Notes: generated by a model not told the origin, from the sequence alone. DNA of 64,000 nucleotides from Cognaticolwellia mytili (GCF_002104475.1 NZ_NBOF01000007.1:124001-188000), one strand, 5' to 3'; shown: positions 19,260 to 38,232, counted from the first letter of the stretch. A program made the numbers and translations.

Positions 19260-21668
19260 TTAATTAACCTGAGGTAAAGTCACCACTAATGAGTAGTGTT
19301 TTCCTGACTGAATATTTTCAACTTTGTTCTCCATAACATGCACGCCATCAACAAGAGTGACTTGCTGTTCAGTTTTTTCATCACGGCTTATTTTTACGGT
19401 AAAATCAGCACTTAAAAACTTGCGTTTTACTGTCATTTTTTGCCAATGAGAAGGCATTTTAGGCGTAATAATCAAACAACCAGCTTCGCCCTTTAAACCA
19501 CACAATTCTTCAATAATACAACGATAGACCCAAGCTACCGTACCGGTATTAAACAACTGACTTGAGCGCCCTGCCATTTCAGGAAATTGCTGATAGGCAC
19601 CACGATAATAATTAGGAATAAAACCTGGTAGTTGTCGACGAACTAAAACATCTTTTTCACTGCTTAGCATTTGTTGAAGAATTTCTAACGCTTTGTCTGT
19701 TTGGCCAATTTGAAACAAGCTGTAAGCATAGAAAGCACTGGCATGATTATAGACTGAGCCATTTTCTGCCGTACCGGGATATTTTTGCGTTAAACGACCA
19801 ACATCCTCACGCATTTTTGTGTAACTTGGCGCCAGCATCATTGGGCCAAAAGGCGTCGATAGTTGCTGATCAATTTCATGTAACAAGTTATCAGTTTTTA
19901 TTTGGTCGGCGGCACCACTTAACATTGCCCAACTTTGTGGGTTAAGGAAAATTCGCCCTTCTACATCGTCAGCAATACCAAAACAATTATTATCATCAGT
20001 AATGCCTCTAGCGTACCAGCTGCCATCCCATAAATGTTTGTTGACGGCGTCATTCAACGCCTGTGCGGCATATTGATATTCAGCTAATTTTTCATCTTGA
20101 GGTAAACCATAGTTTTCTTTAATGCTACACCACTGCTTTAATGCATAAGCCGTAGCTAGTGATAGCCAACTGGATACACCCTTACCTTTATGGCCAACCA
20201 TATTGAGTGGATCACACCAGTCACCCTGTTCAATAAAACTTAAACCTCGCTCGTCAGTGGCATTAAGCAGATAATCAAGCGCAAGCTCAACATGCTCAGC
20301 GACAGTACGAAATGTTGTGTTATCATTAAAGGCAATTTTTTCTCGCAAAATACTAACGTCATTAGTTTCATCTAAATATACCTTTAAACAAAGCGGCAGC
20401 CATACACAGTGGTCGCTGTGGGGAATTAAATTGATATATTTAATTTCTGCATCAGGGTGTAAAAGAATACCGTCAGGCAAACAGCCATCAAACTTTTGCT
20501 GAGATAACGTAGTTAGCAAAGCCTGCTTAGTTTTCTCTGGCGCAATAAAACATATGCCCATCGCATCTTGTAAATAATTTCGCGTTTGTGGGTCAGTGGT
20601 CAGTCTATTGCTATCACCATGATAAAACACTTGCCGAGGCAGCCAGTGATTAACAAACTGATCAAATGCTTTATCTTCACTTTCAAGACTAAAACTTTGC
20701 TGTGACTGCTGAATATAATCTTGATAATGTCCCTGACTTACTTCAAATGCTTGTTCGCTGTCAAAATAGCGTTGTCTAATATCCCCGACTTCTTGCTCAC
20801 TTTTACAGGCACCAAACACAAACTTAAATTGCTGATTTTCTTGTGCTGATAATTCAACGTCGTATTGCATTACAGCAATAGGGGTTTCGTAACAGGCTTC
20901 GTCGCGCGTTAGCTTTTTCGCCTTGATGCCAACAGGAAATTGTATCGACCCTTCACCTTCGAATAATTGCTGGCTGGTTGTCCAACTGTCAGGCTTACGC
21001 TCAGCAAGTAAAAAGGTATCATCTTTTAATTGCTGATATTTATCGTAATCTTCAAGCTTTTGATAAGGCGTAACACTGCTAGCAATAATGGCATTACTGT
21101 CAGGATAATATGTGGCCGATTGATTCATCCAAGATTTATAGCCAATCGAAAAGCACGGATAAATACTGATATTTTTAACATCATTAGTGAGGTTTTTAAT
21201 CTCTAATTGCCATAACTCATGGCAACCTTCTACCGGTAAAGACAAGGTTAAAATAAATTCAATGGCAAGGTGTTCGATACGCCAAACAATGTCAGCTAGC
21301 CCAACAGAAAAGGTAAACTTATCTAGCGGCTTACGCATAGGCTCGTAAGGTATTGAAAATACTTCGTCAGTATCATGACATTTCACATAAAAAAATCGAC
21401 CGGGATGATGAGCAAAGTAACCTTGTTCAGGTTGCATAAAAGTTTTTGCTTCCATATTCGGTGCCCCCGAATATTTACTAGGCTCAGGCTGCATAAATTG
21501 ACTAACGGCATAGCCTCGACAATTCATGTGCACCATCATGGTTTTATTCCATAAAAAACCACTGGCAAATTTCATCGCTACAGGGTCAAAACAATTTATT
21601 CTTTTAGTAACAACATCATGCTGATAAGGCAGCACCGGTGTCACTATTTCTTGCTTACTGTTCATCAT
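19260..21668 (-). CDS. GH94 family phosphorylase, probable cellobionate phosphorylase
   Basis: An 802-residue GH94-type protein: N-terminal beta-sandwich to about 290, then an (alpha/alpha)6 barrel. Barrel hallmarks are RNYLQDAM (363-370, equivalent to the RDxLQD segment), LIPHSDHCVWLP and EQGDWCDPLNM (480-490), which carries the presumed general-acid Asp where cellobiose phosphorylases have GDWNDGMN. The absence of a signal peptide indicates a cytoplasmic enzyme. The adjacent gluconokinase and a GPH symporter make cellobionate + phosphate giving glucose-1-phosphate + gluconate the best guess, as in the known Xanthomonas and Saccharophagus cellobionic acid phosphorylases. Cellobiose or another beta-glucoside cannot be excluded. 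Its ATG follows the symporter stop codon directly (TAAATG), with GGGGAG inside the symporter gene. Confidence 0.85.
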   Translation of the reverse strand: MMNSKQEIVTPVLPYQHDVVTKRINCFDPVAMKFASGFLWNKTMMVHMNCRGYAVSQFMQPEPSKYSGAPNMEAKTFMQPEQGYFAHHPGRFFYVKCHDTDEVFSIPYEPMRKPLDKFTFSVGLADIVWRIEHLAIEFILTLSLPVEGCHELWQLEIKNLTNDVKNISIYPCFSIGYKSWMNQSATYYPDSNAIIASSVTPYQKLEDYDKYQQLKDDTFLLAERKPDSWTTSQQLFEGEGSIQFPVGIKAKKLTRDEACYETPIAVMQYDVELSAQENQQFKFVFGACKSEQEVGDIRQRYFDSEQAFEVSQGHYQDYIQQSQQSFSLESEDKAFDQFVNHWLPRQVFYHGDSNRLTTDPQTRNYLQDAMGICFIAPEKTKQALLTTLSQQKFDGCLPDGILLHPDAEIKYINLIPHSDHCVWLPLCLKVYLDETNDVSILREKIAFNDNTTFRTVAEHVELALDYLLNATDERGLSFIEQGDWCDPLNMVGHKGKGVSSWLSLATAYALKQWCSIKENYGLPQDEKLAEYQYAAQALNDAVNKHLWDGSWYARGITDDNNCFGIADDVEGRIFLNPQSWAMLSGAADQIKTDNLLHEIDQQLSTPFGPMMLAPSYTKMREDVGRLTQKYPGTAENGSVYNHASAFYAYSLFQIGQTDKALEILQQMLSSEKDVLVRRQLPGFIPNYYRGAYQQFPEMAGRSSQLFNTGTVAWVYRCIIEELCGLKGEAGCLIITPKMPSHWQKMTVKRKFLSADFTVKISRDEKTEQQVTLVDGVHVMENKVENIQSGKHYSLVVTLPQVN

Positions 21669-23143: not shown

Positions 23144-23157
23144 TGAAAGCGCTTTCA
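23144..23157. promoter_or_regulatory. LacI-type operator TGAAAGCGCTTTCA upstream of the GPH/GH94 operon
   Basis: Perfect palindrome with the central AAGCGCTT typical of LacI/GalR-family operators; the perfect symmetry extends over 20 bp (23141-23160). On the minus strand it begins a few bases after a TAAAAT -10-like hexamer, so a bound repressor would cover the start site of the symporter operon. Half sites are TGAAAGC, differing from the TGTAAGC sites closer to the receptor gene. Confidence 0.85.
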
Positions 23158-23304
23158 TTTTAAATTTTAAGTTACACTTGAAATCACCTTGATTTGGCAA
23201 AGTAAAGCTTATGAATTGTACATTTCAGTTACAATGAATGAAGATTTAATACAATAATAATCAACAAGATAAATAATAAAGTTCATTTTATAAACAAAAA
23301 AATA

Positions 23305-23333
23305 TTGACGTTAATATTTTTTTCATCTAACTT
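23305..23333 (+). promoter_or_regulatory. Putative sigma-70 promoter of the TonB-dependent receptor gene
   Basis: TTGACG (23305-23310), 17-bp spacer, TAACTT (23328-23333). The first downstream LacI-type operator begins 3 bp after the -10 hexamer, so it would overlap the start point. The same arrangement is seen before the GH1 gene (TTGACC, 17 bp, TAACAT), which strengthens the call. Confidence 0.55.
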
Positions 23334-23335
23334 TA

Positions 23336-23349
23336 TGTAAGCGCTTACA
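23336..23349. promoter_or_regulatory. LacI-type operator TGTAAGCGCTTACA, site 1 before the receptor
   Basis: Perfect 14-bp palindrome directly downstream of the putative -10 box of the receptor promoter. It is identical to the sites at 23393 and 34150. Confidence 0.88.
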
Positions 23350-23392
23350 AAGGCAAGTTAACTATCAGTAGCCTTTTTAAAAAAACCCATAA

Positions 23393-23406
23393 TGTAAGCG
23401 CTTACA
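23393..23406. promoter_or_regulatory. LacI-type operator TGTAAGCGCTTACA, site 2 before the receptor
   Basis: Second identical palindrome, 57 bp centre-to-centre from site 1 and about 60 bp before the receptor start. Paired sites would allow cooperative or looped repression. It lies in the untranslated leader. Confidence 0.88.
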
Positions 23407-23463
23407 AAATTACTTATGAATAACTAGGTTGAATGTGATTAAATGTCTCGAGGGGAGATGCAA

Positions 23464-26445
23464 GTGAATAACAAAACATATAAAAAGTCACGCATAGCAA
23501 CAAGCTTATCGCTAATATTAGGCGTTAGCACTGTTGCACCAATATATGCTGAAGAAGCGAGTAACGCAGAAAAAGAAATTGAAGTCATTCAAGTAACAGG
23601 AATGCGTTCAAGTATCAAAGAGTCGACAAGACTAAAACGTGATGCTAGTGGTGTTGTTGATGCAATATCAGCAGAAGATATTGGTAAATTTCCTGATACT
23701 AACCTCGCAGAATCACTACAACGTATTACGGGTGTGTCAATTGACCGTTCTAACGGCGAAGGCAGTAAAGTTACCGTACGTGGTTTTGGTCCAGACTACA
23801 ATATGATCACACTAAATGGCCGTACTATGCCGGGTGCGTCATTAGGTGATAACAGTACGCGTGCCTTTGACTTTGCTAACCTTTCCTCAGATGCTATAAA
23901 GTCAGTTTCAGTTTATAAAACTGGCCGAGCGGATACTGCAACGGGTGGCATCGGCGCAACCATTGATATTGTGACGGGTAAGCCATTAGATAACCCTGGC
24001 ATGCAAGCAAGCTTTGGTGCCAAAGCAATGCATGACTCAACGAATCGTGTGGGTAGTGATGTTACGCCTGAGCTTTCTGGGTTACTCAGCTGGACTGATG
24101 AAGATGAGCGCTTTGGTGCTTCTATCTCAGCTAATTTTCAACGCCGCGATAGTTCAGCCGCTGGCGCCTTTGTAAATCAATGGCGTACTAATGTATATGA
24201 CGATATTTCAAGCATTCCACAGCAACAAGACGGAACCCCTGCGGTGCTAACTAATGCGCCTGCTGCGGGGCAATTATTCTCTTTACCTTCTGATTTACGC
24301 TATTTTGTTCAAGACAATGAACGTGAACGTACCAATGCCCAAGTAACTTTACAGTATCATCCTGTTGACAGCTTAACAGCAACACTTGATTACACTTATT
24401 CAAAGCAAGATATTCACGCTAACCGTGCAGAACAATCTATTTGGATGGATACTTACAAATCAGCATTAACTTTTGATGATAATACCGTTAAAACGCCAAT
24501 TGGTTATAGCGAAGAACGCCGAGACCAAGCGCCTCGAGATCTTGGCTTAGCTCAACAAGAGCTTAATCAAATCAATGAAAATAAATCTATTGGCTTAAAT
24601 TTAGAATACGAAGTGAATGATCAATTCACTATGATATTTGATGGTCATAGCTCTTCTGCCGATAGCCGCCCTGGAGCTCAATACGGTAGTTGGGTAAATG
24701 CCGGCTTAGGTGCCAATGTTTCATCAGCTCAAGGTGTAAACTTCAACAATGGTTTGCCTGAATTACTAATGACTTTTGACGATTGCGCGGCAAGCAGAGG
24801 CTTAAACTGTAATAACCAATTAGACAATGCTGACATTGGTACCTCTATTTTAGATAAAACTCGTGCTTCACAAAAAACCGAAATTGATCAAATTCGTTTA
24901 AGTGGTCTTTATGAGTTTGATGAAGGCAGTATCGAGTTTGGTATCGAGTCTCGCTCGATGGAAAGCCACGCTTTACAATCAAATACTCGTCATACTATGG
25001 GTAACTGGGGTGTTGAAAATCCAGGTGAGTTGCCTGATGATTTCTTAACACCAGTGAATATTCCAAGCTTGATTGATGATTACAGCAGTGCTGGTGCATA
25101 TTCTAGCGGTGTTACCGGAAGTGCTTCACGCATTGGTGCATGGGCTGGTGATAACTATGGTTTTGATTTTTTATCACATGACCCATACAACACTAATCGT
25201 AAAATTGAAGAAGATGTTACCGCAGTGTTTTTTCAATTTGAACTTGCTGGTGAACTTAGCGGTATGCCGTATAACTTGAGCGCAGGTTTACGTTACGCCA
25301 GTACTGATGTAACGTCTACTGACAACATTGCACTACCGACGGCTGTTGTTTGGGAAGGTAACAACGATTTTAATGTTAGGAATGGCGGTAGCATGGAAAA
25401 CTTTTCAGGGTCTGCAAGCTATGATCACCTGCTCCCTAGCTTCGACTTTGATATCGAAGTAGTCGATGATGTTAAGGCTCGTTTTTCTTACAGTAAAACT
25501 ATTGCCCGCCCACGTTATGACCAACTGAGTGCAGCTCCTGGTGGTGTTGGTGGTCCAAGTAACCCAACCATTTTATCTGGTGCCCAGCTAGGTACTGCCT
25601 CAAGTGGTGACCCAGGCTTAGTGCCGCTTGAGTCAGATAACATAGATATTTCTGCCGAATGGTATTTTGAAGATACGAGTTATGTTTCAATTGGTTTTTA
25701 CGATAAACGCGTCAGTAACTTTACCGGCCGCCAACCAGTCACTGAAAATGTTTACGGATTACGTGATGCTACTGCCGGCCCTCGCGCTTTAGCAGCGCAA
25801 GCTGCATTAGAAGCTCGTGGCCTACAAGTAACAGATACCAACCTATTCTCTATGGTTGCTGCGATGGAAAATGGCGTTGATTTTGATTCAATGACCGCAG
25901 AAGAATTTGAGCAAACTTATGATATTATGCCAAACTCTGATGATCCATTAATGGACTTTACCGTATCAAAATATGTTAATAATAAAGAAGCTAACATTTA
26001 TGGTATGGAATTCGCTATTCAACATTTCTTTGGTGATAGTGGCTTCGGCATTCAAGCAAACTACACTACAGTTAATGGCGATATCGGCTTTGATAACAAT
26101 GGTGACCCAACCGTTACACAGTTTGCCTTGGTAGGCTTAAGTGATACTGCTAACCTTGTGGCTATGTATGAAAAAGGTGGCTTTCAAGCACGTATTGCCT
26201 ACAACTGGCGCGATAAGTTCTTAAATACCCAAGCACAGTATATTAATGAACCGGGTTACACTGAGTCTTATTCTCAAATCGACTTTAACGTTGCTTATGA
26301 AATAAATGACGAGTTATCAGTATTCTTTGAAGGGATTAACATTACAGAAGAGTCTTCTCGAACTCATGGCCGAACGCAAGCCCAACTTTGGCGCTTGGAA
26401 GATTTAGGTGCACGCTATGCAATTGGTGCTCGCTATACTTTCTAA
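23464..26445 (+). CDS. TonB-dependent receptor, carbohydrate-locus type
   Basis: About 994 residues. GTG 23464 is preferred because GGGGAG (23452-23457) lies 6 nt upstream; ATG 23458 abuts the site and ATG 23443 would put it inside the gene. The signal peptide ends near APIYAEE. Then come a TonB box-like segment (EVIQVTGMRSS), a plug domain (SAEDIGKFPDTNLAESLQRITGVSI ... VTVRGFGPDYNMITLNGR) and a long beta-barrel finishing ARYAIGARYTF with C-terminal Phe. The plug pattern is the Xanthomonas/Caulobacter type (TIGR01782-like) usually tied to oligosaccharide uptake. It is divergent from the symporter/GH94 operon and preceded by two LacI operators. Substrate presumably beta-glucan oligosaccharides or aldonates (inference). 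Confidence 0.95.
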   Translation: MNNKTYKKSRIATSLSLILGVSTVAPIYAEEASNAEKEIEVIQVTGMRSSIKESTRLKRDASGVVDAISAEDIGKFPDTNLAESLQRITGVSIDRSNGEGSKVTVRGFGPDYNMITLNGRTMPGASLGDNSTRAFDFANLSSDAIKSVSVYKTGRADTATGGIGATIDIVTGKPLDNPGMQASFGAKAMHDSTNRVGSDVTPELSGLLSWTDEDERFGASISANFQRRDSSAAGAFVNQWRTNVYDDISSIPQQQDGTPAVLTNAPAAGQLFSLPSDLRYFVQDNERERTNAQVTLQYHPVDSLTATLDYTYSKQDIHANRAEQSIWMDTYKSALTFDDNTVKTPIGYSEERRDQAPRDLGLAQQELNQINENKSIGLNLEYEVNDQFTMIFDGHSSSADSRPGAQYGSWVNAGLGANVSSAQGVNFNNGLPELLMTFDDCAASRGLNCNNQLDNADIGTSILDKTRASQKTEIDQIRLSGLYEFDEGSIEFGIESRSMESHALQSNTRHTMGNWGVENPGELPDDFLTPVNIPSLIDDYSSAGAYSSGVTGSASRIGAWAGDNYGFDFLSHDPYNTNRKIEEDVTAVFFQFELAGELSGMPYNLSAGLRYASTDVTSTDNIALPTAVVWEGNNDFNVRNGGSMENFSGSASYDHLLPSFDFDIEVVDDVKARFSYSKTIARPRYDQLSAAPGGVGGPSNPTILSGAQLGTASSGDPGLVPLESDNIDISAEWYFEDTSYVSIGFYDKRVSNFTGRQPVTENVYGLRDATAGPRALAAQAALEARGLQVTDTNLFSMVAAMENGVDFDSMTAEEFEQTYDIMPNSDDPLMDFTVSKYVNNKEANIYGMEFAIQHFFGDSGFGIQANYTTVNGDIGFDNNGDPTVTQFALVGLSDTANLVAMYEKGGFQARIAYNWRDKFLNTQAQYINEPGYTESYSQIDFNVAYEINDELSVFFEGINITEESSRTHGRTQAQLWRLEDLGARYAIGARYTF

Positions 26446-26581: not shown

Positions 26582-28126
26582 ATGGATAAGCCCATTAAAA
26601 AAATAGTCATTGTTGGTGGCGGGAGTGCCGGTTGGTTAACCGCTGGAGTTCTTGCGGCAGAGCACAAAGTTGCTCAGCAGCAATCACTTGAAATCACACT
26701 GGTTGAATCGCCTAATGTCAAAACCATCGGTGTAGGTGAAGGCACTTGGCCGTCAATGCGCAACACGTTAGACAAAATAGGCATTACTGAACTCGAATTT
26801 ATTCAACAATGTGATGCTTCATTTAAGCAAGGCTCAAAGTTTATCAATTGGCAAACAGGGAAAGATGGTGAGTTTTACTATCATCCCTTTATGACGCCTG
26901 AAGGCTATAGCCAAATCGATTTACAAAAGCACTGGCAAGCAACACATTCCCAACAAGCCTTTGCCGACACCATTAATGCTCAATATCACACCTGTGAAAT
27001 GGGCTTAGCGCCAAAACAAATTGCTACACCACCTTATGCCGCAGTTACTAACTATGGCTATCATCTCAATGCAGGAAAGTTTGCCACCCTTTTACAAAAG
27101 CATTGCACCAAAAAGTTAGCTGTTAAACACCTAGTTGCCCATATAGAAAGGATAGTTTCTTCTCCATCAGGCGATATTGAGAAGTTGGCCACACAAGATG
27201 GCCAAACGATTGAAGGTGATTTATTTATCGACTGTTCTGGTAGCGTGGGCTTATTGATTAATAAACATTTTAATATCCCACTCATCAAGCAAGACAATAT
27301 ACTGTTTAATGATTGTGCATTAGCGACACAAGTCCCCTATTTTCAGCAAAACAATATCGCTTCTGCAACATTATCTACTGCGCAAACTAGTGGTTGGATT
27401 TGGGATATTGGCTTACCTTCTCGTCGAGGCGTTGGTCACACATACTCTAGCGCTCATATTAGTGATGCAGAGGCAGAGCAGCAGCTTCGCCAATATATCG
27501 CCAGCTCAATAGGTGATGAAGAGAGTGAAAAGCTTAGCGTACGAAAACTGGCATTTATGCCTGGCTATCGAGAAAAGTTCTGGCATAAGAACTGTGTTGC
27601 CGTTGGTATGTCAGCTGGCTTTATTGAACCACTAGAAGCTTCGGCACTAGCAATGATTGAGCTATCAATCACCATGATCAGCGAACAATTACCGCAAACC
27701 CGCCAGCAAATGGATATTACCGCTAAACGCTTCAACAGTCGTTTTAGTTACCGCTGGCAGCGTGTGATCGAATTCCTTAAATTGCATTATGTGCTTAGCC
27801 AAAGGCGGGATAGTGATTATTGGCGTGATAATCAACAGACAGTAAGTATTCCCGATCGACTCGCTGAATTAATAGAATTGTGGAAATATCAGCCCCCTAG
27901 TCGTTATGACTTTATTGAAAATGAAGAAGTGTTTCCATCAGCAAGTTACCAATATGTACTGTACGGCATGGGCTACCATACTCAGTCACATCAGCATCAA
28001 ACCTTATTTGAAAATAACAAAATAGCAGAACAACTGTTTGCAAAAGTACAATTACAAAAACAACAATTTCAACAAGGTCTACCAACGAACCGCGCATTAA
28101 TAAACCATTACTGCCAACAACAATAG
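26582..28126 (+). CDS. Tryptophan-halogenase-like flavoprotein, copy 1
   Basis: A 514-residue protein of the flavin-dependent tryptophan halogenase family (PF04820). The FAD-binding motif is VGGGSAGW (11-18); GVGEGTWPS follows at about 50. The catalytic Lys of PrnA/RebH (Lys79) aligns with K82 in DASFKQGSKFINW, and the catalytic Glu with E354 in FIEPLEASA. The WxWxIP signature is altered to WIWDIG (274-279), and the chloride-site residues after the Glu are Ala-Ser-Ala rather than Ser-Thr-Gly. No biosynthetic cluster is nearby; instead it sits behind a TonB-dependent receptor in a sugar locus, as is common for this subfamily in Xanthomonas, Caulobacter and Alteromonadales. Its physiological substrate is unknown. 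Confidence 0.88.
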   Translation: MDKPIKKIVIVGGGSAGWLTAGVLAAEHKVAQQQSLEITLVESPNVKTIGVGEGTWPSMRNTLDKIGITELEFIQQCDASFKQGSKFINWQTGKDGEFYYHPFMTPEGYSQIDLQKHWQATHSQQAFADTINAQYHTCEMGLAPKQIATPPYAAVTNYGYHLNAGKFATLLQKHCTKKLAVKHLVAHIERIVSSPSGDIEKLATQDGQTIEGDLFIDCSGSVGLLINKHFNIPLIKQDNILFNDCALATQVPYFQQNNIASATLSTAQTSGWIWDIGLPSRRGVGHTYSSAHISDAEAEQQLRQYIASSIGDEESEKLSVRKLAFMPGYREKFWHKNCVAVGMSAGFIEPLEASALAMIELSITMISEQLPQTRQQMDITAKRFNSRFSYRWQRVIEFLKLHYVLSQRRDSDYWRDNQQTVSIPDRLAELIELWKYQPPSRYDFIENEEVFPSASYQYVLYGMGYHTQSHQHQTLFENNKIAEQLFAKVQLQKQQFQQGLPTNRALINHYCQQQ

Positions 28127-28139
28127 TAAGAGATAAAGC

Positions 28140-29624
28140 ATGAGTGATACTGCAATAAAACATGTTGTCATTACCGGTGGAGGTACCGCAGGTTGGATGA
28201 CAGCCGCCGCCTTTTCAAAGCTACTTGGCAATAACATTAAAGTCACCTTAGTTGAATCTGACGAGATTGGTACCGTAGGTGTGGGAGAAGCAACCATACC
28301 ACCGATCAAAAACTTTCATAAATTGCTCGGTATTAATGAACAAGAAGTCATGAAAGCAACACATGCAACCTTTAAGCTAGGCATTAGTTTTGAAAACTGG
28401 GGGCAAGTGGACGATGAATATATTCATTCATTTGGCGTTACGGGTAAAGAGTGCTGGGCAGGTGAGTTTCACCACTTTTGGCTCGATGGAAAAATGCGTG
28501 GCCATAAAGATGAATTTGGTGAATATTGTTATGAATTACAAGCTGCTAAGCAGAATAAATTCGCACTTAGCAAAGATATGCCGATTAATTATGCCTATCA
28601 CTTAGATGCGACACTTTATGCACAATACTTGCGTAAATTTAGCGAGAAGTTAGGCACAGAGCGTGTTGAAGGGAAAATTTCTCAAGTCGATAAATGCCCA
28701 GCAACAGGTAATATTAGCGCAATCACTTTAGCTTCAGGTAAAACCATATCAGCTGACTTATTTATTGATTGCACGGGGTTTAGAGGCCTTTTAATAGAGC
28801 AAGCATTGCATACCGGTTATGACGATTGGTCACACTGGTTGCCTTGTGACAGCGCTATTGCCGTACAAACGAAGTCAGTGTCAAAACCTAAACCTTATAC
28901 TCGTTCTATCGCTCACAAAGCGGGCTGGCAGTGGCAAATTCCACTGCAACATAGGGTCGGTAACGGTTTAGTTTTTTGCAGTAAATATCTGTCTGATGAT
29001 GATGCGAGAACCTTATTACTTGATAATATTGACGGTGAAACGATCACTGAACCTAGGGTAATAAAATTCAAAACCGGACGCCGCAGAAAAGGCTGGCATA
29101 AAAACTGTGTTGCTATTGGTTTGTCTAGCGGCTTTATTGAGCCATTGGAATCAACCAGTATTCACCTGATCATGACCGCGATTGTACGTTTGCTACGCTT
29201 ATTTCCATACAACGGCGTTACAGAATCAGGCGTTAAGGAATACAATAGTAAATTAGATTCAGAATTAAATGCTGTACGCGACTTTATTGTATTGCACTAT
29301 AAGGTTAACCAACGCCAAGACAGTGAATTTTGGCAACACTGCCAGCAAATGGAAATACCAGAATCACTTGCGCATAAAATAGCTCTATTTAAAGAAACAG
29401 GACGTGTATTTCTAGATGACGGTGATATTTTCCGCGTTGATTCTTGGACACAAGTGATGTTTGGCCAAGGTTTAATACCTACGCAGTATCACCAAATAGC
29501 CAATGTTATGAGCGATGATGAACTTCATAAGTTTTTAGCAAGTATGAAATTAGCCATTACTCAAGCTGTTGAGAAATTGCCTGAACATGATGACTTCATT
29601 AAGCATTACTGCCCTTCAAACTGA
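28140..29624 (+). CDS. Tryptophan-halogenase-like flavoprotein, copy 2
   Basis: A 494-residue paralogue of the preceding gene, 13 bp downstream, so the two are one operon. FAD motif ITGGGTAGWMTA (11-22), GVGEATIPPIKNF (47-59), catalytic Lys K79 in HATFKLGISFENW, an intact WQWQIP signature (263-268) and catalytic Glu E337 in FIEPLESTS. Compared with copy 1 it keeps the canonical halogenase signatures, so it is the better candidate for an active enzyme. A flavin reductase partner is not encoded here. Sequence drift between the copies suggests different substrates or a heteromer; neither is proven. Confidence 0.9.
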   Translation: MSDTAIKHVVITGGGTAGWMTAAAFSKLLGNNIKVTLVESDEIGTVGVGEATIPPIKNFHKLLGINEQEVMKATHATFKLGISFENWGQVDDEYIHSFGVTGKECWAGEFHHFWLDGKMRGHKDEFGEYCYELQAAKQNKFALSKDMPINYAYHLDATLYAQYLRKFSEKLGTERVEGKISQVDKCPATGNISAITLASGKTISADLFIDCTGFRGLLIEQALHTGYDDWSHWLPCDSAIAVQTKSVSKPKPYTRSIAHKAGWQWQIPLQHRVGNGLVFCSKYLSDDDARTLLLDNIDGETITEPRVIKFKTGRRRKGWHKNCVAIGLSSGFIEPLESTSIHLIMTAIVRLLRLFPYNGVTESGVKEYNSKLDSELNAVRDFIVLHYKVNQRQDSEFWQHCQQMEIPESLAHKIALFKETGRVFLDDGDIFRVDSWTQVMFGQGLIPTQYHQIANVMSDDELHKFLASMKLAITQAVEKLPEHDDFIKHYCPSN

Positions 29625-34090: not shown

Positions 34091-34104
34091 TGTAAGCGCT
34101 TTCA
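34091..34104. promoter_or_regulatory. LacI-type operator TGTAAGCGCTTTCA, hybrid site before GH1
   Basis: One TGTAAGC half and one TGAAAGC half, thus a hybrid of the two operator types found before the receptor operons. Symmetry extends over 26 bp (34085-34110) with one mismatched pair. It overlaps the expected start of the GH1 transcript and is also placed to affect the divergent permease promoter. Confidence 0.85.
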
Positions 34105-34149
34105 TTTGAATTTCATTCTTACAGAAGCCTAAAATTTTTTCAAGTGAAA

Positions 34150-34163
34150 TGTAAGCGCTTACA
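34150..34163. promoter_or_regulatory. LacI-type operator TGTAAGCGCTTACA, second site before GH1
   Basis: Perfect palindrome identical to the receptor sites, 59 bp centre-to-centre from the hybrid site, in the leader of the GH1 transcript. The 57/59-bp pairing in two separate promoter regions points to the same regulator. Confidence 0.88.
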
Positions 34164-37134: not shown

Positions 37135-37227
37135 TCATTAACGGGTCTAGCGATTTAAAGTGCAACTATATATGATATTATTCAAAGCTTAGTTTTGACA
37201 CTGAGTCTGAGAAACGAAAGGAAAATC

Positions 37228-38232
37228 ATGGCGACCATTTACCAAGTATCTGAATTAGCAAAGGTATCACTTGCCACCGTTTCACGGGTGATGAATGGTA
37301 ATGCGAAAGTCAGTGATAAAACGCGAGAAAAAGTTTTATTGGCAATGAAAGAACTTGGTTATCGGCCAAATTCAATTGCTCAGTCACTGGCGTCTAGCCG
37401 AGGCAATAGTATTGGCTTATTAGTGTCAGAGCTGCATGGTGCTTTTTTTGGCGAAATGATGGCCGGAGTTGAAAGTGAACTTAGGTCTGCCGGCAAGCAT
37501 ATTATTGTTACTACAGGTCACAGCATTGAAGAAAAAGAAAAAGAAGGTATTGAATTTCTTATTAGTAGAAATTGCGATGCTATTATCTTACATGTTGAAG
37601 CCGTTTCAGATGAATACTTAGAAGAATTAAGTAAGGGTAAAACACCCATTTTTATCATCAGTCGCTATGTCGAAAACCTTGCCGAACAATGTATTAGTTT
37701 AGACAATGAACTCGGCGGATACTTAGCAACAAAATCGTTGTTAGATCTAGGCCACACCGACATTGCTTGTATTGCCGGGCCACAATACAAGTTTGATGCT
37801 AAAGCCAGATTTGAGGGCTACAAACGGGCATTGGCAGAATATAATATCACTTTCAATGAAGAGCTTTTTTATAGCGCCGACTTTAAAGAAACCGGTGGCA
37901 GTGAAGGTATCGCACATTTAATGGCGCAACAGCAAGAATTTACCGGCTTAGTATGTGGTAATGATGAAATGGCCTCTGGTGCAATGAACTTTGCCCGTGA
38001 GCGCGGTTTATCTTTACCTGAAGATCTTTCTGTTGTTGGTTTTGATGATGTTATTTTTGCTCGCTATATTCATCCGAAATTAACCACCATATTAAATCCA
38101 GTTAATGAAATGGGTCGAATGGCAGCTAAGTTGGTATTAAAACAGATATACCAAACCAAAGAACAAACAATTCAGCAAGTATTTAAACCTTCACTCATTG
38201 TGCGTGAATCTACGCAATTGATTCATCGCTAA
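37228..38232 (+). CDS. LacI-family transcriptional repressor
   Basis: A 334-residue protein starting at ATG 37228, preceded by AAAGGAAA; a TTG at 37195 would add 11 residues without support. HTH at residues 1-25 (TIYQVSELAKVSLATVSRVMN), hinge with RPNSIAQSLASSR, then a periplasmic-binding-like sugar-sensing core (IGLLVSELHGAFFGEMMAGV, DGF-like VVGFDDVIFARYIHP). This is the only LacI member in the window and the natural candidate for the five palindromic operators. It lies 93 bp after the symporter gene. Effector probably glucose, cellobiose or an aldonate (inference). Confidence 0.95.
   Translation: MATIYQVSELAKVSLATVSRVMNGNAKVSDKTREKVLLAMKELGYRPNSIAQSLASSRGNSIGLLVSELHGAFFGEMMAGVESELRSAGKHIIVTTGHSIEEKEKEGIEFLISRNCDAIILHVEAVSDEYLEELSKGKTPIFIISRYVENLAEQCISLDNELGGYLATKSLLDLGHTDIACIAGPQYKFDAKARFEGYKRALAEYNITFNEELFYSADFKETGGSEGIAHLMAQQQEFTGLVCGNDEMASGAMNFARERGLSLPEDLSVVGFDDVIFARYIHPKLTTILNPVNEMGRMAAKLVLKQIYQTKEQTIQQVFKPSLIVRESTQLIHR

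What the first reader, a model, noticed from the sequence alone, without database searches (positions are those of the whole stretch)
26582..29624. Two tandem flavin-dependent halogenase homologues inside a sugar-uptake locus
Two adjacent PF04820 genes sit between a TonB-dependent receptor and glycoside hydrolases, with no biosynthetic cluster or flavin reductase. Copy 2 keeps Lys79, Glu337 and WQWQIP; copy 1 keeps Lys and Glu but has WIWDIG and an altered halide-site triplet. The recurrent coupling of such genes with carbohydrate TonB receptors is known from genomes, yet their role is unexplained. They may modify the receptor, its ligand or an aromatic signal.
Basis: partly seen in the sequence, partly recalled or inferred. 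Interest (0 to 1): 0.7.

Follow-up and report, generated by a model that had tools for sequence, protein, structure and literature searches.

The report
Halogenase pair from receptor-linked oxygenase module
Two enzymes related to bromine-adding halogenases sit just behind a sugar receptor because they are the remnant of a widespread gene module that travels with such receptors whatever the sugar, which suggests, without proof, that they chemically modify the receptor or another protein rather than make a natural product.

Summary
Window 26582-28126 and 28140-29624 encode two full-length PF04820 flavin-dependent halogenases with catalytic Lys and Glu, directly behind a TIGR01782 TonB receptor in a beta-glucoside locus. 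They are not a recent duplication. They are about 31% identical and belong to two ancient subfamilies: A (2PYX-like) and B (Xcc4156/BrvH-like). The 'altered' motifs of copy 1 are normal for subfamily A (Lys and Glu 75/75).

Across alpha-, beta- and gammaproteobacteria the pair flanks two further genes: TBDR > FDH-A > SapC > Cupin_8 (JmjC hydroxylase-like) > FDH-B (> DUF6445, a 2OG-oxygenase fold). The window carries a reduced form that lost SapC and Cupin_8, in one receptor clade. In the order-level sample 37 of 45 halogenases lie within 5 kb of such a receptor (0.8 expected), in beta-glucan, starch and chitin loci alike. A terminator-like hairpin often separates receptor from enzymes.

My best explanation is a cytoplasmic oxidative/halogenating modification system for a protein or peptide, foremost the cognate receptor. 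That substrate is inferred. No receptor residue tracks the module after correction for ancestry (only 8 independent contrasts). I found no paper in the library describing the module; BrvH and Xcc4156 are known and were already suspected to act on peptides.

The parts
23443..26445 (+). TIGR01782-type TonB-dependent receptor (1000 aa), first gene of the module
   Evidence: TIGR01782 649 bits, cut-off 310; Pfam Plug and barrel
26582..28126 (+). FDH-A, flavin-dependent halogenase homologue, subfamily A (514 aa), K82, E352, WIWDIG
   Evidence: PF04820 407.5 bits; best solved relative 2pyx 594 bits, then 9ltb and 9lu2; catalytic Lys and Glu 75/75 in the subfamily
28140..29624 (+). FDH-B, flavin-dependent halogenase homologue, subfamily B (494 aa), K79, E337, WQWQIP
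   Evidence: PF04820 633.6 bits; best solved relatives 6y1w (Xcc4156) 599, 9luq 596, 6frl (BrvH) 473 bits
26461..26486 (+). Terminator-like hairpin between receptor and FDH-A, probable attenuator
   Evidence: 11-pair stem with T tail; such hairpins at 37 of 108 receptor-to-module junctions and 0 of 45 junctions inside modules
23144..23406 (.). Three LacI-type operator palindromes TGWAAGCGCTTWCA (23144-23157, 23336-23349, 23393-23406) upstream of the receptor
   Evidence: 5 exact matches in the window (three here, two at 34091 and 34150), 0.12 expected
34091..34163 (.). Two further operators of the same sequence upstream of the GH1 gene
19260..21668 (-). GH94 phosphorylase, sugar context
   Evidence: PF17167 206.7 bits
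21669..23018 (-). GPH-type sugar symporter, divergent from the receptor
   Evidence: TIGR00792 409 bits
30094..32694 (-). GH3 glycosidase, convergent with FDH-B
   Evidence: PF00933 266.6 bits
32723..33988 (-). GluP-type sugar MFS transporter
   Evidence: TIGR01272 388 bits
34213..35583 (+). GH1 beta-glucosidase
   Evidence: TIGR03356 595 bits
35599..37134 (+). Second GPH-type sugar symporter
   Evidence: TIGR00792 375 bits
37195..38232 (+). LacI-family regulator, probable controller of the operators
   Evidence: PF00356, PF13377; link to the operators is inference

Best explanation
The pair is the reduced form of an ancient receptor-linked oxygenase module (TBDR > FDH-A > SapC > Cupin_8 > FDH-B > DUF6445). 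Shown here by computation: both enzymes keep the flavin site, the catalytic Lys and the catalytic Glu of halogenases; the module follows TIGR01782 receptors across classes of proteobacteria and across sugar types; and a terminator-like hairpin lies between receptor and enzymes here and in many relatives. Inferred: the enzymes are made in smaller amounts than the receptor; they lack a signal peptide (sequence starts at the flavin-binding fold) and work in the cytoplasm with FADH2 from a general flavin reductase; they halogenate, probably brominate, an aromatic side chain of a protein or peptide; and the most likely substrate is the co-encoded receptor before export, with the Cupin_8 and DUF6445 enzymes, where present, hydroxylating side chains of the same protein and SapC acting as an adaptor. 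The modification would tune receptor assembly, sugar binding, or recognition of the receptor by phages or bacteriocins.
For: Linkage: all 5 full-length PF04820 genes of this genome follow 3 of its 4 TIGR01782 receptors, in beta-glucoside, GlcNAc/chitin and alpha-glucan-like loci. Order sample: 37 of 45 within 5 kb, 0.76 expected. Among 68 related loci with at least 6 kb of upstream DNA, 62 have the receptor upstream on the same strand, 56 SapC, 44 Cupin_8, 39 FDH-A. Junctions inside the module are short or overlapping, medians mostly -4 to 15 bp. FDH-A, FDH-B and SapC distances track receptor distances (Mantel r 0.82, 0.72, 0.73) more than the neighbouring LacI (0.39) or GH3 (-0.03) genes do. 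Catalytic Lys and Glu: 75/75 in A; 170/177 and 171/177 in B. Protein-substrate hints: the Cupin_8 profile's best solved relatives are protein hydroxylases (FIH, JMJD5, JMJD7) with an invariant HxD...H triad; DUF6445 folds like OGFOD1, prolyl hydroxylases and PHD2 (Z 12.4-14.6) with an invariant HxD...H. Xcc4156 and BrvH do not accept free Trp, and their authors suspect a peptide substrate (PMC7336383; PMC5945002). Precedents: SrpI brominates a peptidyl Trp (PMC10286304); the flavoenzyme QhpG dihydroxylates a protein Trp (PMC7876137).
Against: No receptor residue marks module-linked receptors. A Trp in the loop at receptor positions 326-355 is in 87% of linked, 41% of unlinked and 28% of halogenase-free-genome receptors, but eight phylogenetically independent contrasts give no support. 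The cytoplasmic enzymes would have to act on an unfolded secretory protein. The window lacks the two enzymes that argue most for a protein substrate; the genome has no Cupin_8 at all. In the common subset of loci LacI tracks the receptor about as well as FDH-B (r 0.56 against 0.60). One genome in the order sample (G051) has a halogenase pair and no TIGR01782 receptor. No activity was measured.
Confidence: 0.4

Rival explanations
1. The enzymes act on a small molecule that enters with the sugar, such as the aromatic aglycone of a plant or algal beta-glucoside, to detoxify or use it.
For: The window locus has GH1, GH3 and GH94 enzymes and sugar symporters suited to beta-glucosides. BrvH and Xcc4156 accept indole or indole derivatives.
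Against: The same subfamilies follow receptors in starch-type (GH13/31/97) and chitin (GH20) loci: 30 and 7 loci against 59 beta-glucan loci. Known indole turnover by BrvH is very low. Enzyme distances track the receptor, not GH3.
Confidence: 0.18
2. The enzymes are protein- or peptide-modifying flavin monooxygenases rather than halogenases, hydroxylating Trp or Tyr as QhpG does.
For: QhpG shares the fold and acts on a protein Trp. Copy 1 lacks the Pro of WxWxIP, a motif proposed to prevent monooxygenase activity (motif role). The module partners are hydroxylase-type enzymes.
Against: Catalytic Lys and Glu are kept in 75/75 A and about 96% of B. Two B-type relatives, BrvH and Xcc4156, are reported to halogenate in vitro. 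The QhpG model scores far below its cut-off.
Confidence: 0.15
3. The enzymes make a halogenated signal or antibiotic (for example a bromoindole) released when the sugar is sensed.
For: Sugar-type operators lie upstream of the receptor, so expression is probably sugar-controlled. BrvH brominates indole at C3.
Against: No other biosynthetic gene is in the window or recurs in the modules. Genomes of this family carry up to 18 copies, odd for one signal.
Confidence: 0.12

Closest known systems
Xcc4156 (PDB 6y1w), Xanthomonas campestris
   Same: Closest characterised relative of FDH-B (599 bits over the whole length); same motifs. A Xanthomonas relative at L248 lies in a TBDR-SapC-Cupin_8-FDH-B module.
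   Different: Native substrate unknown. The Xanthomonas L248 locus keeps SapC and Cupin_8; the window has lost them and has FDH-A.
BrvH (PDB 6frl), Brevundimonas
   Same: FDH-B family; also encoded beside a second halogenase gene (PMC5945002); brominates indole, not tryptophan.
   Different: Its partner is 42.7% identical to it, whereas the window's two copies are about 31% identical and of different subfamilies.
2pyx (structural genomics, annotated tryptophan halogenase)
   Same: Closest solved relative of FDH-A (594 bits), same W.WDIG and EPLEAS motifs.
   Different: No function published in the library.
RebH, PrnA, Thal (free L-Trp halogenases)
   Same: Same fold family, catalytic Lys and Glu.
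   Different: Lower similarity (about 215-285 bits); window copies sit outside any biosynthetic cluster.
QhpG (peptidyl Trp dihydroxylase)
   Same: Related flavoenzyme that modifies Trp in a protein.
   Different: Far below the QhpG model cut-off; window copies keep halogenase Lys and Glu.
SrpI (peptide Trp brominase)
   Same: Flavin-dependent brominase acting on a ribosomal peptide.
   Different: RiPP cluster with a leader peptide; no TonB receptor described. Sequence relationship not tested here.
CUT loci (Blanvillain et al. 2007)
   Same: TonB receptor with glycosidases, inner-membrane transporter and sugar regulator.
   Different: That paper's main text contains no mention of halogenases; the enzyme module is an extra layer.

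Membership tests
Flavin-dependent halogenases (PF04820) | Full-length PF04820 match with GxGxxG | tested here: met
   407.5 and 633.6 bits, cut-off 21; GxGxxG present
Flavin-dependent halogenases (PF04820) | Catalytic Lys and Glu | tested here: met
   Copy 1 K82/E352, copy 2 K79/E337
Flavin-dependent halogenases (PF04820) | WxWxIP motif, copy 2 | tested here: met
   WQWQIP at 263-268
Flavin-dependent halogenases (PF04820) | WxWxIP motif, copy 1 | tested here: not met
   WIWDIG; W.W.I kept, Pro replaced, usual in the subfamily
Flavin-dependent halogenases (PF04820) | Halogenating activity | not testable with these tools
   Needs enzyme assay
BrvH/Xcc4156 clade | Closest to BrvH/Xcc4156 among solved halogenases (copy 2) | tested here: met
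   6y1w 599, 9luq 596, 6frl 473, RebH 282 bits
Free-tryptophan halogenases (RebH/PrnA type) | Closest relatives are free-Trp halogenases | tested here: not met
   Closest are Xcc4156/BrvH and 2pyx
Free-tryptophan halogenases (RebH/PrnA type) | Backbone-binding residues for free Trp | not tested
   Reported absent in Xcc4156 and BrvH; not mapped here
QhpG | NCBIfam QhpG equivalog above cut-off | tested here: not met
   32.5 and 26.4 bits, cut-off 240
CUT locus | TonB receptor with glycosidase, transporter and sugar regulator | tested here: met
CUT locus | TonB-dependent uptake of the sugar | not testable with these tools
   Needs uptake assay
Receptor-linked module TBDR-FDH-A-SapC-Cupin_8-FDH-B | FDH-A and FDH-B behind a TIGR01782 receptor | tested here: met
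Receptor-linked module TBDR-FDH-A-SapC-Cupin_8-FDH-B | SapC and Cupin_8 present | tested here: not met
   Absent in the locus; no Cupin_8 in the genome, two SapC elsewhere; the reduced form is one receptor clade of 6

The most novel reading that the evidence does not exclude
Proteobacteria carry a dedicated cytoplasmic system that halogenates and hydroxylates side chains of outer-membrane TonB receptors, one enzyme set per receptor, before export; the window holds a minimal halogenase-only version.
Probability: 0.28. Interest if true: 0.9.

Novelty: new variant of a known kind. Interest (0 to 1): 0.6.

Why it matters
Very many genes annotated 'tryptophan halogenase' in marine, soil and plant bacteria have no known substrate; 55 of 60 genomes in this bacterial family carry them. 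The module ties them to a specific outer-membrane receptor and to two protein-hydroxylase-type enzymes, which turns an open question into a direct mass-spectrometry test. If receptors are halogenated, it would be a new kind of outer-membrane protein modification, bearing on nutrient uptake and phage recognition.

Tried and rejected
Receptor as marked substrate: column-wise contrasts of linked and unlinked receptors, within the window's receptor clade and against genomes without halogenases. The best lead, a Trp in the loop at 326-355, failed the phylogenetically independent contrasts (only 8 pairs). Tyr660 looked specific with 5 receptors but is in 64% of 25 halogenase-free-genome receptors (a few of those rows were wrong-frame ORFs, corrected). 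Tandem duplication: rejected, 31% identity and two subfamilies. Copy 1 as a decaying enzyme: rejected, catalytic residues invariant in 75 relatives. SapC fold: confident model (pLDDT 97) with no PDB match by Foldseek or VIA-align, so no function follows. Literature: searches pairing tryptophan halogenase with TonB or SapC found no paper on the link. Laying out the whole genome was not available.

Full report
Observation. Copy 2 has K79, E337 and WQWQIP; copy 1 has K82, E352, WIWDIG and EAS in place of EST. Upstream is a TIGR01782 TonB receptor; around them are GH94, GPH symporters, GH3, a GluP-type transporter, GH1 and a LacI regulator. There is no biosynthetic cluster or flavin reductase among the window ORFs scanned; one flavin reductase gene lies elsewhere in the genome.

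Two subfamilies, not a duplication. The copies are about 31% identical. Copy 1 is closest to 2pyx, 9ltb and 9lu2, copy 2 to Xcc4156, 9luq and BrvH. In subfamily B Lys and Glu are kept in 170 and 171 of 177.

Linkage. This genome has five full-length PF04820 genes, all behind three of its four TIGR01782 receptors above cut-off: the window, a GlcNAc/chitin locus (TBDR-FDH-FDH-SapC-GH20 and sugar-phosphate genes) and a locus with an alpha-glucan-binding protein. In 59 genomes of the order, 37 of 45 full-length PF04820 genes lie within 5 kb of such a receptor, against 0.76 expected; some of the remainder are contig ends or lie in a genome where only 13 receptor candidates were scored. Across 259 genomes of the phylum, 39 of 47 genomes with a halogenase also have the receptor, against 20 of 212 without (counts taken by hand; Fisher p 1.3e-23). 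One search scored only three receptor candidates per genome, so receptor counts there are lower bounds.

The module. Eighty neighbourhoods of FDH-B relatives in alpha-, beta- and gammaproteobacteria show a recurring order: TBDR > FDH-A > SapC (PF07277) > Cupin_8 (PF13621) > FDH-B, sometimes > DUF6445 (PF20043). These 80 are the closest relatives, so frequencies are biased to this type. Module genes are nearly contiguous. The window type, FDH-A next to FDH-B without SapC and Cupin_8, is one clade of six receptors nested among receptors with the longer module, so the two genes were most simply lost once. This genome has no Cupin_8 anywhere and two SapC genes elsewhere.

Sugar independence. Loci with these enzymes carry beta-glucan (59), alpha-glucan (30) or chitin (7) enzymes, with 66 unassigned, so a sugar-specific ligand is an unlikely common substrate. 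FDH-A, FDH-B and SapC distances correlate with receptor distances (r 0.82, 0.72, 0.73), LacI less (0.39), GH3 not; in a common subset of 39 loci LacI is about as good as FDH-B, so this is moderate evidence.

Expression. Five operator palindromes TGWAAGCGCTTWCA lie in the two intergenic regions before the receptor and the GH1 gene (0.12 expected), probably bound by the LacI regulator at 37195-38232 (inference). A strong hairpin with a T tail separates receptor and FDH-A. Such hairpins occur at 37 of 108 receptor-to-module junctions and at none of 45 junctions inside modules. This suggests much receptor and little enzyme, fitting catalysts.

Chemistry of the partners. Cupin_8 of the module has the HxD...H triad and its closest solved relatives are FIH, JMJD5 and JMJD7, hydroxylases of protein side chains. 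DUF6445 was predicted at pLDDT 93 and matches OGFOD1, a bacterial prolyl hydroxylase and PHD2, with an invariant HxD...H. A shared fold does not prove function. SapC has a confident model with no match in the PDB. Together with the peptide hypothesis for BrvH and Xcc4156, the peptide brominase SrpI and QhpG, this favours a protein or peptide substrate. The receptor is the one non-enzyme partner that recurs.

Test of the receptor as substrate. No residue distinguishes linked receptors. Trp in the loop at 326-355 is the strongest Trp contrast (0.87, 0.41, 0.28) but comparable contrasts exist for other residues elsewhere, and independent pairs do not support it. With eight pairs the test has little power, so the receptor is neither shown nor excluded.

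Known and new. The enzymes are members of known halogenase subfamilies. The library I could search holds no paper on their link with sugar TonB receptors, SapC or Cupin_8; subscription papers and annotation databases were not searched, and from memory regulon databases have listed such neighbours in sugar regulons.

Noticed in passing
L083:6268-7704, L088:9040-10527, L070:7885-9345, L086:5493-6980, L090:6480-8213, L098:10034-11530, L099:8739-10217: Seven FDH-B paralogues have lost the catalytic Lys and/or Glu, all inside tandem FDH-B arrays beside other copies; possible pseudoenzyme partners.
   Followed up: partly
L195:8192-8917 and 48 relatives: SapC (PF07277) of the module has a very confident predicted structure with no match among solved structures.
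   Followed up: yes
L217:11512-12201 and 10 relatives: DUF6445 (PF20043) looks like a Fe(II)/2-oxoglutarate oxygenase of the prolyl-hydroxylase type.
   Followed up: yes
L037:8260-16652: Third halogenase locus of this genome: receptor, a halogenase closer to Th-Hal than to BrvH, an FG-GAP/ASPIC protein and a vanadium-chloroperoxidase-like protein, next to an alpha-glucan-binding protein.
   Followed up: partly
   Followed up: no
MT835646.1:12003-15221: A record labelled bacteriophage (human faecal sample) carries both an FDH-B relative (50% identity) and SapC, possibly a mislabelled bacterial contig.
   Followed up: no
phage collection: Cyanophages and Pelagibacter phages carry distant halogenase homologues, about 30% identical to copy 2.
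   Followed up: no
window:35599-37134: The second GPH symporter matches its family in two separate stretches, unlike the first; it may carry an insertion.
   Followed up: no
window:8107-12138: A 1343-aa protein combining endonuclease I, lamin-tail, endonuclease/exonuclease/phosphatase and dockerin domains.
   Followed up: no
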